From IMG/VR virus record IMGVR_UViG_3300009285_001119, positions 1 to 39,199 of that record: a stretch of 39,199 nucleotides of DNA. One strand, given 5' to 3'. Positions 11,628 through 19,667 of this stretch are shown here, one piece after another (within the stretch, counting starts at the first letter, position 1; every line of letters starts with the position of its first letter). The notes below the pieces were generated by a model. It had not been told where the DNA came from, did no database searches, and saw nothing but the letters and a program-made list of their open reading frames with translations. The DNA is from a virus. The position numbers and the translations under genes are program-made.

Positions 11628-12206
11628 ATGAAAATAGAATTTAACCCGGGAGGACATCAGTACAAAATTGACGGGAAATCAACGCCTAGCGTTAGCCAAA
11701 TAATCGGCGCGGACTATTCCCACATAAGCGATGATATCTTAAACCATGCCAGAGCCATTGGAAATGCGGTGCATAAGGCTTGCGAGCTATGGGACAACCA
11801 GACTATCAACCCGGACACGATCTCACCTATTATCGCGCCATACCTATCTGCATGGAAGCAATTTAAAGAGCAGACCGGACTTCAAATCCTGGAAAGTGAA
11901 ACCCCCATAGCCTCCAAAAAATGGGGGTTTGCCGGTACTCCGGACCGGATCGGTAAAATCAAGGACATGATCGTAGTCGTGGACATCAAATCAGGGATAT
12001 TGACGCCATATGCCGGACTTCAGACCGCCGGATATAAAATAGCATGGGAGGAAATAAACGGGAAAAAAATAAAAAAAAGACTAATAGTACAGCTCACAGC
12101 AGAGGGAAAATATAAGATGACGCCGTTTGAGGATAAAATGGATGAGGGGGTTTTTATCAGCTTCGTGCAGGTTTACCAGTGGAAGCAGAGAAATAAAATA
12201 TTATAG
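11628..12206 (+). CDS. PD-(D/E)XK exonuclease, 192 aa
   Basis: Cas4/RecB-like fold. Seen: GNAVHKACE (His49), FAGTPDRIG with Asp106, VVVDIKSG with Asp119 and Lys121, and LQTAGYKIA with Gln132, the ordered H, D, DxK and QxxxY motifs of phage exonucleases. It probably resects DNA ends for the annealing-type protein encoded just upstream. No Shine-Dalgarno is visible; see the leader structure. The C-terminus after residue 165 is short. Confidence 0.82.
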   Translation: MKIEFNPGGHQYKIDGKSTPSVSQIIGADYSHISDDILNHARAIGNAVHKACELWDNQTINPDTISPIIAPYLSAWKQFKEQTGLQILESETPIASKKWGFAGTPDRIGKIKDMIVVVDIKSGILTPYAGLQTAGYKIAWEEINGKKIKKRLIVQLTAEGKYKMTPFEDKMDEGVFISFVQVYQWKQRNKIL

Positions 12207-12217
12207 GAGGTGAAAAA

Positions 12218-12481
12218 ATGCTAGAAGAAAGAACAGGGCTAGATAAAGACAAGGCGTATATGACTGCAAAAGACAGGGTTATAGGATACCTAGAGAATCC
12301 GGCAGAAGCCACGGAGAATGTTGCAAAGGTGGCGTTGGGATATATGTCTATTGCGTCAAGACTTTATGCTTCACTAAGGAACAATGTTTCAACGCAATTC
12401 AGGATATATCAGTTTATCAGCAAAGACCCGCAGGAAGTAAAAAAGAGAATTGAAAAAAGTATGCCATATTTAATAAAATGA
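12218..12481 (+). CDS. Hypothetical helical protein, 87 aa
   Basis: A strong AGGAGGTG precedes the ATG, 11 bases after the nuclease stop. Alternating helices (TENVAKVALGYMSIASRLYAS) with no recognisable motif. As a recombination-operon member it may assist the nuclease, but that is only context. Confidence 0.55.
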   Translation: MLEERTGLDKDKAYMTAKDRVIGYLENPAEATENVAKVALGYMSIASRLYASLRNNVSTQFRIYQFISKDPQEVKKRIEKSMPYLIK

Positions 12482-12497
12482 AACGGAGTATTCTGTT

Positions 12498-12552
12498 GTC
12501 GGGTACTGTCGCGTGTAGTTCAGTAGGGGAAGGCAAGGTAAAGTAAAGCTTT
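12498..12552 (+). repeat. Pentamer-periodic tract, G at every fifth base (11 units)
   Basis: Reading from 12498 in fives, all 11 pentamers begin with G, and nine of the eleven second bases are T (the others G and C with one more C at the last unit). The last units are GCAAG, GTAAA, GTAAA, GCTTT. It fills the leader of the 186-aa gene and stops just before an AT-rich stretch and its ribosome site. Units vary at positions 3-5, so it is a phase-conserved rather than sequence-conserved repeat. Confidence 0.75.
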
Positions 12553-12572
12553 AATTAAAGGGGGCAATAAAA

Positions 12573-13133
12573 ATGAAAAGTATTTTAGTATCAATTGAAG
12601 GACTGTCTGATCTGTTGATGAATAAGTTTAACGACTCCAGCATTACGGTTAAGGCGAAAAAGCAGGTAGGGGTTGACCAAAAAACGCCAGAGTTTGTTGC
12701 AGAAAATGCTACCTATCGGGACAAGGATAATAATATTTTTATACCGTACACCTGGCTAGAGGGAACACTCAAAGGGGCTTCTGTAAATTTTAAGATGGCG
12801 GGCAAAGGAAAGAAGACCTATAAAAACATAATAGGAAGCTCGGTGGCAGTAAACCCGCCTGAAATATTATTATCGCCTCAAAAGTATGAAATATTTTCAA
12901 TAGCTGCTGTGAATAAAATTATGAAATCAAGAGTAATGAGCCACCGTCCAAGGTTTTCAAACTGGAGTGTTGAGTTTGCCATTGACATTCTAGACGATAC
13001 TTTATCACCAGAAGAAATAAAGCCAATGCTTGAATATGCTGGAATGTATATAGGGATAGGAGCATGGAGGCCGGGGATTGCGGGCAGATACGGCAAGTTT
13101 CAGATTACAAAATGGGAAGTAATTGAGAAATGA
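12573..13133 (+). CDS. Unrecognised conserved-type phage protein between pentamer tracts, 186 aa
   Basis: Begins MKSILVSIEGLSDLLMNKF, then YRDKDNNIFIPYTWLEGTLKG (residues 48-68), GKGKKTYKN, SHRPRFSNWSVEFAIDI (about 124-140) and YAGMYIGIGAWRPG (about 154-167) ending GRYGKFQITKWEV. The motif pattern (invariant-looking RPRF-W and GIGAWRP-G-YGKF) suggests a folded domain seen in other phages. The N-terminal strand-helix with LLMNKF recalls Cas7/RAMP-type folds, a weak resemblance only. Pentamer tracts lie directly upstream and downstream. Function unknown; nucleic-acid binding is inferred. Confidence 0.6.
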   Translation: MKSILVSIEGLSDLLMNKFNDSSITVKAKKQVGVDQKTPEFVAENATYRDKDNNIFIPYTWLEGTLKGASVNFKMAGKGKKTYKNIIGSSVAVNPPEILLSPQKYEIFSIAAVNKIMKSRVMSHRPRFSNWSVEFAIDILDDTLSPEEIKPMLEYAGMYIGIGAWRPGIAGRYGKFQITKWEVIEK

Positions 13134-13134
13134 A

Positions 13135-13199
13135 GTGTTGTGAAGCATGGCCGAGAACGGTGTTGTAATGCTATGACTAGCAAAGTAAGGTAAAGAATA
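13135..13199 (+). repeat. Pentamer-periodic tract, G at every fifth base (13 units)
   Basis: From 13135, thirteen consecutive pentamers begin with G, starting two bases after the stop of the 186-aa gene. The end (GCAAA, GTAAG, GTAAA, GAATA) matches the end of the tract at 12498 with few changes, and both are followed by an AT-rich stretch and a GGGGG ribosome site. It forms the leader of the next gene. Confidence 0.78.
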
Positions 13200-13218
13200 T
13201 TATAAAAAGGGGGATAAA

Positions 13219-13878
13219 ATGATAGAAGTTAATGAAGACCAGAAAAGCGTTATCGTTGAAGCGGAATCAGTGGCAACGAAATTGTCGGGGATAGTTATTA
13301 CGAATAATGACGAGTACGCGAACGCCGGGGAAATCTTAAAAACAGTTGCCGGCAAAATAAAGAGACTTGAAGAAATGCGGCTTGAGAAAACCCGCCCCCT
13401 GGATAAGTTAAAAAAAGAGTGGATGGAGTGGTTTAACAAGCCCCTGGAAATGTTAAAATCAACCGACAGGGGAATCAGGCAGGCTATGCAAACATACTAT
13501 GCCAAGCAGGAAACTAAGCGCCGGGAAGAGGAACGGATCCTCCGGGAACAGGCCGAAAAGGAAGCTGAAAAGATCCGCAAACAAGCTGAACGAGCCGAAG
13601 CCAAAGGGAAGGATGGAAAAGCGGAAATGTTAAAGGAAAAGGCCGAGCAAATACAAAACATCACGCCAATGGTGGCAAACAAAGTTGAACAGGTCAAGGG
13701 AATCTCAATGCGGAAGACATGGAAATTTGAAATAGTGGACGCTAAGAAAATTCCTCCAGAATTTACTTGCCCGGACGAAAAGAAGATTAGGCAATATGTA
13801 AATGCGACAAAAGGAGAATTTCCCATTGCCGGAATACGGATATATTCAGAGGAGGCCCCCTCTGTAAGGAGCGAATAA
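13219..13878 (+). CDS. Coiled-coil recombination-region protein, 219 aa
   Basis: Residues about 40-145 are a long Lys/Glu/Arg-rich coiled coil. The C-terminal part (KGISMRKTWKFEIVDAKKIP, then EKKIRQYVNATKGEFPIAGIRIYSEE) is a small globular domain common beside phage SSB and annealase genes. Role unknown, perhaps an accessory or structural partner in recombination. A ribosome site AAAAGGGGG precedes the ATG, and the stop overlaps the next start (TAATG). Confidence 0.6.
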   Translation: MIEVNEDQKSVIVEAESVATKLSGIVITNNDEYANAGEILKTVAGKIKRLEEMRLEKTRPLDKLKKEWMEWFNKPLEMLKSTDRGIRQAMQTYYAKQETKRREEERILREQAEKEAEKIRKQAERAEAKGKDGKAEMLKEKAEQIQNITPMVANKVEQVKGISMRKTWKFEIVDAKKIPPEFTCPDEKKIRQYVNATKGEFPIAGIRIYSEEAPSVRSE

Positions 13879-14084
13879 TGAACGAAGCAATCAATGGGAT
13901 TTTCAGCGGACTGGCATTCGTTGGCGTAATATTCCTTTATTTCCTGCCATCATTCATGGCAAGAGGGAAAAAACATTACAGCGGAATAGAAATATTAAAC
14001 ATATTTCTTGGCTGGACAGGTTTGGGCTGGGTGCTTGCCTTGATCTGGGCGGTATCAGACGAGGACAAACCAAAGACGACTTGA
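13878..14084 (+). CDS. Superinfection-immunity-like membrane protein, 68 aa
   Basis: Two transmembrane segments (residues about 7-24 and 42-60) joined by ARGKKHYSGIEILNIFLGWTGLGW; the pattern FLPSFMARGKKH...LNxFLGWTxxGWVxALIWA is that of the Imm_superinfect family, to which T4 Imm belongs. In T4 such a protein blocks entry of DNA from a second phage. It is translationally coupled to the coiled-coil gene. Confidence 0.72.
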   Translation: MNEAINGIFSGLAFVGVIFLYFLPSFMARGKKHYSGIEILNIFLGWTGLGWVLALIWAVSDEDKPKTT

Positions 14085-14833: not shown

Positions 14834-15402
14834 CAAATATATCTCGCTTGCAAGACATATCGCCGGGAGCTAATGTAAAAGACCCCCCACTAAATGATTA
14901 TATTGATATGCTGGCGGAACTAAAAAATCAAATCTCAAACCGATTGTTAGATATTGGCAAGTGGTTATCCTATCTATACGAATCGGAAAAATACAGGGAA
15001 CAATTTGAAACCTTTGAAGAATTTTTAGGCACTCCCGAATTATCATTCAGCCGGGCGGTGGCATATAAGAGCATGGCAGTTTATAAATTTACAGAAAAAT
15101 ATAAGGCGGACATAACAGGAATTGACGGCGACAAGGTATACCGGATAATTAAGCCGATAGAAAAATCAGGCAATCTTGAGGAATGGCTGGAAAAGGCGCG
15201 CGTCCTCTCCCGAAGCGATCTTGCAACCGAGGTAAGGCAATTCTGTGGATTAGCCGAGCACGATTACGCTAAGCACTCAAGCGAGCATGTCAAAGAATGG
15301 CTATATGAATTCTGCCCCAAAAAAGGAATCAACCCAGACGAATTAGAACTAGAAGAACTACTCGGGCAATTTTTGAAATGGTATAAAAGGAATTTAACAT
15401 GA
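14830..15402 (+). CDS. Hypothetical protein, 190 aa (DUF3102-like region)
   Basis: The start is chosen at the ATG overlapping the previous stop (ATGA). Helical throughout: LLDIGKWLSYLYESEKYREQ, FEEFLGTPELSFSRAVAYKSM resembles phage DNA-associated proteins with a helix-turn-helix, and ARVLSRSDLATEVRQFCG follows. Possibly a DNA-binding or partition-like protein. The stop is coupled to the glycosyltransferase (ATGA). Confidence 0.5.
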   Translation: MTNISRLQDISPGANVKDPPLNDYIDMLAELKNQISNRLLDIGKWLSYLYESEKYREQFETFEEFLGTPELSFSRAVAYKSMAVYKFTEKYKADITGIDGDKVYRIIKPIEKSGNLEEWLEKARVLSRSDLATEVRQFCGLAEHDYAKHSSEHVKEWLYEFCPKKGINPDELELEELLGQFLKWYKRNLT

Positions 15403-16073
15403 AAAACAAAACCGGGCTCTACCTCATCAACTGTAATTATTCGCAATATCTGCCGTGGGCGCTCCGATCCATTGAAGCGCTCACAGTTCAGCCGGACGTT
15501 CTGGTCTTTATTGATGATGCTTCCACGGATAACAGCGTTGAGATTATCCATAAACATTTTGGCCATATAAGGTTTGAAGAATTCATAATCAACCCTGAAA
15601 ACGCTGGCGCGGTTTGGACTATGAACCATATTGTTAAAATTTTAGGAGAAGAACATAGTTGCAATTATGTGTTTGGACTATCAGCGGACGACCTCTTGCA
15701 CCCGGACTACATCAAAAAAACAAAAGAAGCACTTAACAATGCGGACGAAGCCACCGGATGGATTTATACCCATGTCCGGCGAATTGGAGATGAAAACTCT
15801 ATTGACATACACCCAGAATGGAATAAGGAGCTCCACCTGCGAACGCCATTTTGCCACGGATCAAGCCTAATAAAATATGAAGCATGGAAATCGGTTGATG
15901 GATTGCCTGATATTGACAAGGAAGAAGACTGGCAATTATTCAAAAACCTTTCGGCACTGGGTTGGAAAGGAAGGCTCCTGCCAGAGGCATTGTTATACTG
16001 GCGCAAACATCGTGACCATGCCCGAACAGTATCAAAAAATCAAGGCTGGGAATTAAGAGGAGGGAAAAAATGA
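15399..16073 (+). CDS. Family 2 glycosyltransferase, 224 aa
   Basis: GT-A fold: an N-terminal NCNYSQYLPWALRSIEAL segment, VFIDDASTDNSVEII (about 36-50), LSADDLLHPDY (acidic metal-binding motif at residues 96-98), and EEDWQLFKNL near residue 175, the C-terminal acidic catalytic region. No membrane segment. It transfers a sugar from a nucleotide donor; acceptor unknown (host surface glycan, virion protein or DNA). It forms a pair with the acyltransferase gene downstream (ATGA overlap). Confidence 0.82.
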   Translation: MKNKTGLYLINCNYSQYLPWALRSIEALTVQPDVLVFIDDASTDNSVEIIHKHFGHIRFEEFIINPENAGAVWTMNHIVKILGEEHSCNYVFGLSADDLLHPDYIKKTKEALNNADEATGWIYTHVRRIGDENSIDIHPEWNKELHLRTPFCHGSSLIKYEAWKSVDGLPDIDKEEDWQLFKNLSALGWKGRLLPEALLYWRKHRDHARTVSKNQGWELRGGKK

Positions 16074-16762
16074 AACAGTATAAATGGGAAATAGTAAAAC
16101 GCGGACACGATAATATTCTTGAAAAGAAAACCATCGGCTATGATCTTGAAGATTTGATTTTCCGTAACTTACTTGAAATAGGAGAGGGAACGATCATTGA
16201 TGAAGGGGTAATCCTTTGCCACCCGCTGGCAAACGGAAATATCGCAGGACGATTAAAAATAGGTAAAAATTGTAAAATCCGCTCCGGTACGGTATTTTAC
16301 TGCGACGTTGAAATCGGAGACAACTGTACCTTCGGGCATAACGCCGTGGTCAGAGAATGCTGCCGAATAGGCAATAATACAAGCATTGGCACTTTGGTTT
16401 CAGTGGAAAACAATACCATCATTGGAAACAATGTAAGCGTTGAGACAGCTGCACACATCACCGGACACGCCACCATTGAGGACTATGTTTTTATCGGAGG
16501 GTTTGTTGGCTCTACTAACGACCTGACGATGAAATACCGCAGGGAGGGACACGGAAAAGGGCTAAAAGGGGCGACCATTAAGTACGGAGCAAGAATCGGA
16601 AGCGGGGCAATCCTTATGCCGGGGATTATTATTGGAGAATATTCAATCATAAACGCAGGGGAAGTTGTGAGAAAAGATGCTCCTGCCCGGCATTTAATGT
16701 TTACAGAAAAAAACGAAGTAATATATAAGCCCCTGACAAATATTGAGGAAATAAAAAAATAA
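16070..16762 (+). CDS. Left-handed beta-helix acyltransferase, 230 aa
   Basis: Hexapeptide repeats fill most of the protein (IGKNCKI, IGDNCTF, IGNNTSI, IGNNVSV, IEDYVFIGGF, IGSGAIL, IGEYSII), the mark of sugar O- or N-acetyltransferases of the LbetaH superfamily; His133 (AAHITGHAT region) is a candidate catalytic histidine. Probably acetylates the sugar made or added by the adjacent glycosyltransferase. Confidence 0.85.
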   Translation: MKQYKWEIVKRGHDNILEKKTIGYDLEDLIFRNLLEIGEGTIIDEGVILCHPLANGNIAGRLKIGKNCKIRSGTVFYCDVEIGDNCTFGHNAVVRECCRIGNNTSIGTLVSVENNTIIGNNVSVETAAHITGHATIEDYVFIGGFVGSTNDLTMKYRREGHGKGLKGATIKYGARIGSGAILMPGIIIGEYSIINAGEVVRKDAPARHLMFTEKNEVIYKPLTNIEEIKK

Positions 16763-19026: not shown

Positions 19027-19080
19027 TACGTTTTCTTTTTGGCTGCGGAACGATAAGAGATTAAAGAGGAGGGAAAATCA

Positions 19081-19667
19081 TGAAAATAGAAATTAGAAAT
19101 CGCTGGACTTCCGAAATTATTATTGAGGGGGATTATGATAGTGTAAAGGATTGTTTGGAAAAAAAGCGCGGTAGCAACTTGCGCGGTATCAACTTGAGCG
19201 ATAGCAACTTGCGCGGTATCAACTTGAGTTATATCAACTTGCGCGGTAGCGACTTGAGCAATAGCAACTTGAGCGATAGCAACTTGCGCGGTAGCGACTT
19301 GAGCGGTAGCGACTTGAGCAATAGCAACTTGCGCGGTAGCGACTTGCGCGGTAGCGACTTGAGCGGTAGCGACTTGAGCGGTAGCGACTTGAGCGGTAGC
19401 GACTTGAGCGGTAGCGACTTGCGCGGTAGCGACTTGAGCGGTAGCGACTTGAGCAATAGCAACTTGAGCGATAGCAACTTGCGCGGTAGCGACTTGAGCG
19501 ATAGCAACTTGAGCGGTAGCGACTTGAGCAATAGCAACTTGCGCGGTAGCAACTTGCGCGGTAGCGACTTGAGCGGTAGCGACTTGAGCAATAGCAAAAT
19601 TTTGGTTACTCAAAAGGATTTATTATTGAAAGCCTTAAGAATTGAAATAGTGGAGGTAAAAAAATGA
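19081..19667 (+). CDS. Pentapeptide-repeat protein, 195 aa
   Basis: After a 30-residue N-terminus (IRNRWTSEIIIEGDYDSVKD), about 28 tandem five-residue repeats of the type (S/N/D)-L-(S/R)-(G/D/N)-S build a right-handed quadrilateral beta-helix. Some members (MfpA, Qnr) mimic DNA and protect gyrase; others are structural, so the role here is open. GAGGAGGG precedes the ATG. The DNA repeats are very uniform, implying recent expansion. Confidence 0.85.
19166..19596 (+). repeat. 15-bp tandem DNA repeats in the pentapeptide gene
   Basis: The unit GGTAGCGACTTGAGC varies mainly between AGCGGT, CGCGGT, AGCAAT and AGCGAT at the junctions; about 28 units. Because the unit length is a multiple of three, long false frames open on both strands. 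Confidence 0.85.

What the first reader, a model, noticed from the sequence alone, without database searches (positions are those of the whole stretch)
12498..13199. Two 5-base-periodic tracts flank an unknown gene
In the two intergenic leaders (12498-12552 and 13135-13199), G occurs at every fifth base 11 and 13 times in a row, mostly followed by T or C, while the other positions vary. The last units agree between tracts (GCAAR, GTAAR, GTAAA). Each tract ends before an AT-rich stretch and a GGGGG ribosome site. Phase kept while letters drift suggests a nucleic-acid-binding filament with five bases per subunit, or another helical read-out. Ordinary promoters, terminators and direct repeats do not explain it. 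The protein between them, SSB, or the annealing-type protein could be the reader.
Basis: seen in the sequence. Interest (0 to 1): 0.88.

Follow-up and report, generated by a model that had tools for sequence, protein, structure and literature searches.

The report
Phage guide-RNA locus of VIPR type
The odd five-base rhythm on both sides of this phage gene is most likely a pair of guide RNAs for a small CRISPR-like protein encoded between them, a recently described way for phages to recognise DNA, here with a looser version of the repeat than the one first reported.

Summary
G recurs every fifth base 11 times (12498-12552) and 13 times (13135-13199); no simulated window had a run of 13. The tracts fill the gaps around a 186-aa gene. 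That protein is predicted to have the fold of CRISPR Cas7/Csm3 subunits, and its only significant sequence match in the PDB is the phage SUSP1 Vipr protein. A DNA-only search for such tracts found 23 other virus records with variable arrays; 19 encode the same protein family, against 0 of 33 controls. This is most likely a VIPR locus (preprint PMC13142463): the tracts are guide RNAs, the 186-aa protein is Vipr, and the drifting letters are the message. One difference: the reported repeat is YNNGG, but here only G and a following pyrimidine are kept (GYNNN). The fifth base is also free, or fixed as A or T, in several other Vipr lineages. No convincing DNA target was found. It is a new member of a very recently described kind.

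The parts
12218..12481 (+). 87-aa ORF before the first tract; unknown, not shown to belong to the system
   Evidence: no Pfam family at E 0.1 and only a weak PHROG match, E 0.088
12488..12552 (+). Tract 1 = proposed vrRNA 1: GTATT CTGTT then 11 units with G in phase (12498-12552); about 9 variable units, then GCAAG GTAAA GTAAA
   Evidence: same kind of array in 23 other virus records
12560..12564 (+). GGGGG ribosome-site-like run before the 186-aa gene
   Evidence: sequence
12573..13133 (+). 186-aa Vipr homologue (RAMP/Cas7-like fold, C-terminal glycine-rich stretch GIGAWRPGIAGRYGKF)
   Evidence: phrog_4652 E 1e-20; PDB 36pp_D SUSP1 Vipr E 5e-11; model pLDDT 87.7; Foldseek best 3.0e-8, VIA-align Z 12.3, top rows CRISPR RAMP subunits
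13135..13199 (+). Tract 2 = proposed vrRNA 2: 13 units with G in phase; about 9 variable units, then GCAAA GTAAG GTAAA
13209..13213 (+). GGGGG ribosome-site-like run before the 219-aa gene
   Evidence: sequence
13219..13878 (+). 219-aa ORF (phrog_10477); possible but unproven accessory gene. Its relative in L002 lies in a record without a Vipr match

Best explanation
This is a VIPR locus (Viral Interference Programmable Repeat) in a phage. The 186-aa protein is Vipr, a single-domain relative of the Cas7/Csm3 backbone proteins of CRISPR. The two tracts are vrRNAs, guide RNAs made of five-base units in which G and the next pyrimidine form a fixed scaffold and the following bases carry target information. 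Vipr subunits are expected to line up on the RNA, about one per unit, and to hold the variable bases so that they pair with a DNA target in steps, silencing a gene of a competing phage or mobile element. Shown here: the phase and its non-randomness, the fold by prediction, homology to the proven SUSP1 Vipr, association of array and protein in both directions, and replacement of variable bases on a fixed scaffold between two near-identical viruses. Inferred from the preprint: RNA expression, RNP formation, DNA targeting, the 1-nt skip rule and the inter-phage role. Unknown: the targets, and whether the unfixed fifth base is read.
For: Phase beyond chance. A pattern scan by DNA alone gave 57 stretches, of which 24 (in 23 records) were variable GYNNx arrays by my reading; phrog_4652 then rang in 19 of 23 of these records and in 0 of 33 records whose hits were Lys-rich coding runs or simple tandem repeats (Fisher p 2e-11). 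The proven Vipr is in the same family: phiSUSP1 KT454805.2 matches phrog_4652 at E 2.1e-98. Reverse test: of 14 loci reached by protein, all had an array next to the gene, 13 clearly and 1 weakly (L119). PDB 36pp_D 'SUSP1 Vipr protein' matches the window protein at 5e-11 and a 16-member profile at 3.1e-26. Predicted RAMP fold. G003 and G020: Vipr 196/198 identical, but 13 against 4 arrays, of which one is identical (60/60 bases compared) and no other pair shares half of its NN dinucleotides; scaffold and tail stay.
Against: The repeat here is GYNNN, not YNNGG: the fifth base is G in 6 of 18 variable units (33%), against 76% in SUSP1 and up to 100% in other records. No folded 3' tail: folding of both leaders is no better than shuffles, z -0.25 and -0.11. 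No recognisable accessory gene. No convincing target: the one 18/18 match (L109/L110) came from scans giving 5 and 6 stretches, while a reversed-order control gave 6. 4 of the 23 array records show no Vipr match. No expression data.
Confidence: 0.92

Rival explanations
1. The tracts are protein-binding leader elements: the RAMP-fold protein binds the G/Y phase in its own mRNA and its neighbour's to control translation, and the variable bases carry no target information.
For: Both tracts end 20 bases or less before start codons with strong ribosome-site-like runs, so binding would plausibly affect translation; no target was found.
Against: Related systems carry up to 13 separate arrays in one gap, and near-identical viruses replace the variable bases wholesale while keeping the scaffold, which suits guides. 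SUSP1 vrRNAs were shown to guide DNA binding (PMC13142463, Results read).
Confidence: 0.05
2. A decaying VIPR locus: the scaffold has lost the first G of GGY and the RNAs no longer work.
For: Fifth base unfixed; one broken G at 12493 and one non-pyrimidine at 12529.
Against: The phased G is intact in 13 of 13 and 11 of 11 units, which decay would not spare. The same loosening occurs in other records with intact Vipr reading frames, G011, G013 and G016.
Confidence: 0.08
3. A nucleation site for a single-strand DNA filament protein (SSB or annealing protein of this operon) or an origin element.
For: SSB and exonuclease genes lie just upstream; a five-base step would suit some annealing proteins (recalled, not tested).
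Against: The array co-occurs with the RAMP-fold family (19 of 23). Of the window proteins between 7,000 and 15,000, SSB had one match among the searched loci and the exonuclease none.
Confidence: 0.02
4. Chance or a by-product of coding or tandem repeats.
For: Lag-5 G runs do arise from pentapeptide-repeat genes (19168-19597).
Against: Both tracts are between genes, units differ from each other, and the Markov control gave 0 of 1000 windows with a run of 13.
Confidence: 0.005

Closest known systems
VIPR system of Escherichia phage SUSP1 (type II in PMC13142463)
   Same: Small RAMP-fold protein of one family; five-base arrays in the gaps beside its gene, same strand; phage-encoded; similar number of units per array (13-16 there, 11-13 here)
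   Different: SUSP1 has 4 arrays, G as fifth base in 76% of variable units and a tail with a conserved structure (preprint); the window has 2 arrays, a free fifth base and no folded tail
VIPR-like loci in virus records G011, G013, G016 (this work)
   Same: Vipr-family protein and GTNNN arrays with an unfixed fifth base, entropy 1.74-1.95 bits
   Different: Different Vipr lineages in the tree; G016 has one unbroken 71-unit array before vipr
CRISPR type III/VII Cas7-family subunits (Csm3, type VII Cas7)
   Same: Predicted fold: Foldseek E 3.0e-8, VIA-align Z 12.3 over about 160 residues
   Different: About 15% identity; no CRISPR-associated genes seen in the domain searches made; the guide is an array of five-base units rather than a repeat-spacer array

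Membership tests
VIPR system | Small (~20 kDa) single-domain RAMP-fold protein with glycine-rich loop | tested here: met
   186 aa; model pLDDT 87.7, pTM 0.82; top matches are CRISPR RAMP subunits; conserved GIGxxRPxxxGxYGRF
VIPR system | Sequence homology to a proven Vipr | tested here: met
   PDB 36pp_D SUSP1 Vipr E 5e-11; phrog_4652 E 1e-20, the family SUSP1 matches at 2.1e-98
VIPR system | Tandem five-base repeats with alternating fixed and variable bases in gaps flanking vipr | tested here: met
   11 and 13 phased units either side of the gene
VIPR system | Fixed motif is GGY (YNNGG), 'or a related consensus' (PMC13142463) | tested here: inconclusive
   Strict GGY not met: fifth base G in 6 of 18 variable units. 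'Related consensus' is shown in a supplementary figure I could not see
VIPR system | Invariant 3' tail after the repeats | tested here: inconclusive
   Both tracts end GYAAR GTAAR GTAAA then A+T-rich DNA, but no significant fold
VIPR system | Accessory vap gene | tested here: inconclusive
   The 219-aa neighbour has a relative only in L002, a record with no Vipr match
VIPR system | vrRNA expressed and bound by Vipr | not testable with these tools
   needs RNA sequencing and pull-down
VIPR system | DNA target read by NN with 1-nt skip | tested here: inconclusive
   Scans of viral contigs gave no more matches than a reversed-order control; no excess in 84 held loci
CRISPR-Cas | Repeat-spacer array with cas genes | tested here: not met
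   No repeat-spacer array in 12300-13400; domain searches of 21 distinct window proteins named no cas effector, only a sub-threshold Csa1 match for the exonuclease

The most novel reading that the evidence does not exclude
In this lineage the scaffold has shrunk to two bases (GY) and all three remaining bases of each unit pair with DNA, so the target is read as contiguous triplets with no skipped base: a second VIPR code, evolved more than once among Vipr lineages, with A-fixed and T-fixed fifth bases as further dialects.
Probability: 0.15. Interest if true: 0.85.

Novelty: new member of a known kind. Interest (0 to 1): 0.62.

Why it matters
VIPR was described in a 2026 preprint as RNA-guided DNA recognition that predates CRISPR. 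This locus is a compact example (one gene, two guides) whose repeat departs from the published YNNGG. Comparing Vipr lineages whose fifth base is G, A, T or free would show which scaffold bases the protein needs and whether more than two bases per unit can be read, which bears on how the code works and on its use as a tool. It also shows that such loci can be found from DNA periodicity alone.

Tried and rejected
Rfam: no match in the window. Close relatives of the 186-aa protein in viral contigs by peptide pattern: none. DNA-level relatives of 12000-14000 in the phage collection: none. Genome contigs with a three-sequence alignment: two loci only (L112, L113); the host of this phage remains unknown. 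Target search: tract 2 units 1-8 gave 5 stretches and units 2-9 gave 6; tract 1 units 2-9 gave 1 and units 1-8 gave 2; the reversed-order control for tract 2 gave 6. L109/L110, one sequence in two records, matches all nine NN of tract 2 and sits in a promoter-like gap, but is not above the control level. A test of 0-3 skipped bases on 84 held loci gave nothing convincing: scattered 17/18 matches at every skip length, besides self-arrays and copies of the same contig. Promoter and terminator scans: no excess over shuffles. Pfam and PADLOC on 16 Vipr proteins: no family matched more than one member. Tree of 28 Viprs: window position unresolved. Records G007, G009, G021 and G022 carry arrays without a recognised Vipr; a profile of 28 Viprs gave best E 0.031, left open.

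The split of pattern hits into 23 array records and 33 controls was made by eye before the protein search. Some records are near copies (G005/G018, G013/G017, G015/G019, G003/G020), so 23 records are about 19 groups, 15 of them with Vipr; the controls also hold near copies. The pattern required a GNAAR GTAAR GTAAR end, so the commonness of that end among the hits is not evidence. In one search arrays with under 65% pyrimidine at position 2, or few distinct units, were dropped before counting; Ecliptus (L116) lost its arrays that way although one search shows them. Records G017 and G018 (near copies) were not counted.

Full report
OBSERVATION. The two tracts are as described. G stands at every fifth base 11 times from 12498 and 13 times from 13135. 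The phase of T shows that tract 1 probably begins at 12488 with one broken G. A second-order Markov control gave runs of 11 or more in 6 of 1000 windows, of 13 in none, and two runs of 11 in none. The one longer run in the window belongs to a pentapeptide-repeat-like gene. The tracts fill the 91-bp and 85-bp gaps around the 186-aa gene in a tightly packed genome, median gap 1 bp.

RELATED SEQUENCES BY DNA ALONE. A pattern of nine phased G units ending in GNAAR GTAAR GTAAR was scanned through viral contigs: 57 stretches. Listed unit by unit, 24 stretches in 23 records are arrays whose units differ from each other (for example GTCAG GTGAG GTGTG GTCGG), one of the 24 being a simple repeat in the same record as another; the other 33 are Lys-rich coding runs or simple tandem repeats. 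Many of the 23 records hold several arrays, often just before a gene.

THE PROTEIN. The family of the 186-aa protein, phrog_4652 (E 1e-20; function unknown in that library), rang in 19 of the 23 array records and in 0 of the 33 others plus L002 (Fisher p 2e-11 without L002). In reverse, 14 loci reached by protein were inspected: wV8, phiHSIC, Vibrio phage 1.266.O, LESphi2, two bacterial MAG contigs, five actinobacterial phages, two plasmids and SUSP1. All have an array beside the gene, the Azospirillum one (L119) only weakly. An AlphaFold2 model from 16 relatives is confident (pLDDT 87.7, pTM 0.82), and its best matches among solved structures are type VII Cas7 and Csm3 chains (Foldseek 3.0e-8; VIA-align Z 12.3, rmsd 4.7, 161 aligned). 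By sequence, the only significant PDB match of the window protein is 36pp_D, 'SUSP1 Vipr protein', E 5e-11; the 16-member profile gives 3.1e-26.

WHAT IT IS. A literature search for pentanucleotide repeats in phages returned PMC13142463, a bioRxiv preprint of April-June 2026; I read its abstract, Results, Discussion and figure legends, not its supplements. It describes VIPR: a phage-encoded ancestral RAMP protein, Vipr, with vrRNAs of 9-16 YNNGG repeats in the gaps beside the gene, which recognise DNA through the NN pairs with one skipped target base per unit and repress genes of competing phages. The window fits in protein family, fold, placement, unit length and number of units. Four further searches for other reports found, as relevant, only this preprint.

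INDEPENDENT EVIDENCE FOR GUIDE FUNCTION. Records G003 and G020 have Vipr proteins identical at 196 of 198 residues (DNA 582 of 597), yet 13 and 4 arrays. One array is identical in both (60 of 60 bases compared); no other pair shares half of its NN dinucleotides, while the G-Y scaffold and the end GAATG/GTTTA-ATGAATTTAAT stay. Even the first array, at the same place with the same right flank, differs in its NN content. This is what guide turnover on a fixed scaffold would look like.

WHERE THE WINDOW DIFFERS. In the 18 variable units counted, positions 3, 4 and 5 are about equally free (entropies 1.84, 1.95, 1.80 bits). In G002, G005, G021 and G023 the fifth base is always G; in SUSP1 it is G in 76%; in G022 it is A in 96%; in G008 and G010 it is mostly T (70% and 62%); in G011, G013 and G016 it is as free as in the window. 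The free class is scattered in a tree of 28 Viprs (several forks weak, window unresolved). The shared core therefore seems to be G-Y, with the preceding base a lineage trait. Whether the freed base is unread or also pairs cannot be settled here. The preprint mentions 'a related consensus' for some types, in a supplementary figure I could not see, so I do not claim this as a first sight.

TARGETS. Four scans with NN-skip-1 patterns from the two tracts gave 5, 1, 2 and 6 stretches; a reversed-order control gave 6. The single 18 of 18 match (L109/L110) lies in a promoter-like gap but is not above control, and its skipped bases match the fifth base in 3 of 9. The targets are unknown.

MECHANISM, SHOWN AND INFERRED. 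Shown: phase, family, predicted fold, two-way association, scaffold-preserving turnover in relatives. Inferred: both RNAs are cut from the operon transcript, Vipr coats them one subunit per unit, the complex finds DNA by the variable bases and blocks transcription. Because tract 1 lies in the leader of vipr itself, loading of Vipr on that RNA might also limit its own translation; this is speculation from position alone.

VERDICT. A real and unusual feature, explained with high confidence as a VIPR locus of a phage of unknown host; new as a member and possibly as a dialect of the code.

Noticed in passing
window 19080-19667: 195-aa pentapeptide-repeat-like protein encoded by about 28 copies of a 15-bp repeat; it explains the longest lag-5 G run of the window.
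   Followed up: yes
window 15399-16762: A family 2 glycosyltransferase gene followed by a hexapeptide-repeat transferase gene within the early region of the phage; perhaps a sugar-modification pair.
   Followed up: no
L080 11936-12290 (record G016): A 71-unit, 355-base array directly before vipr, possibly the overlapping-array layout that the preprint mentions.
   Followed up: partly
L065 4503-5692 (record G003): A gap holding 13 arrays one after another, each with a common end and A+T-rich spacer, like a guide cassette bank.
   Followed up: yes
L070 9425-10935, L072 18549-18613, L084 954-3480, L085 6274-6839 (records G007, G009, G021, G022): Arrays of the same kind in records with no recognised Vipr; either fragments, divergent Viprs, or elements that borrow another's protein. 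G022 uses A as the fixed fifth base.
   Followed up: partly
L098 and L099 (phiHSIC, Vibrio phage 1.266.O): Arrays beside their Vipr homologues read GCANN, with the third base mostly A, a further scaffold dialect.
   Followed up: partly
L109 2019-2045: Promoter-like gap with the inverted repeat GTTGAC/GTCAAC that matches all nine NN of tract 2; judged chance-level.
   Followed up: partly
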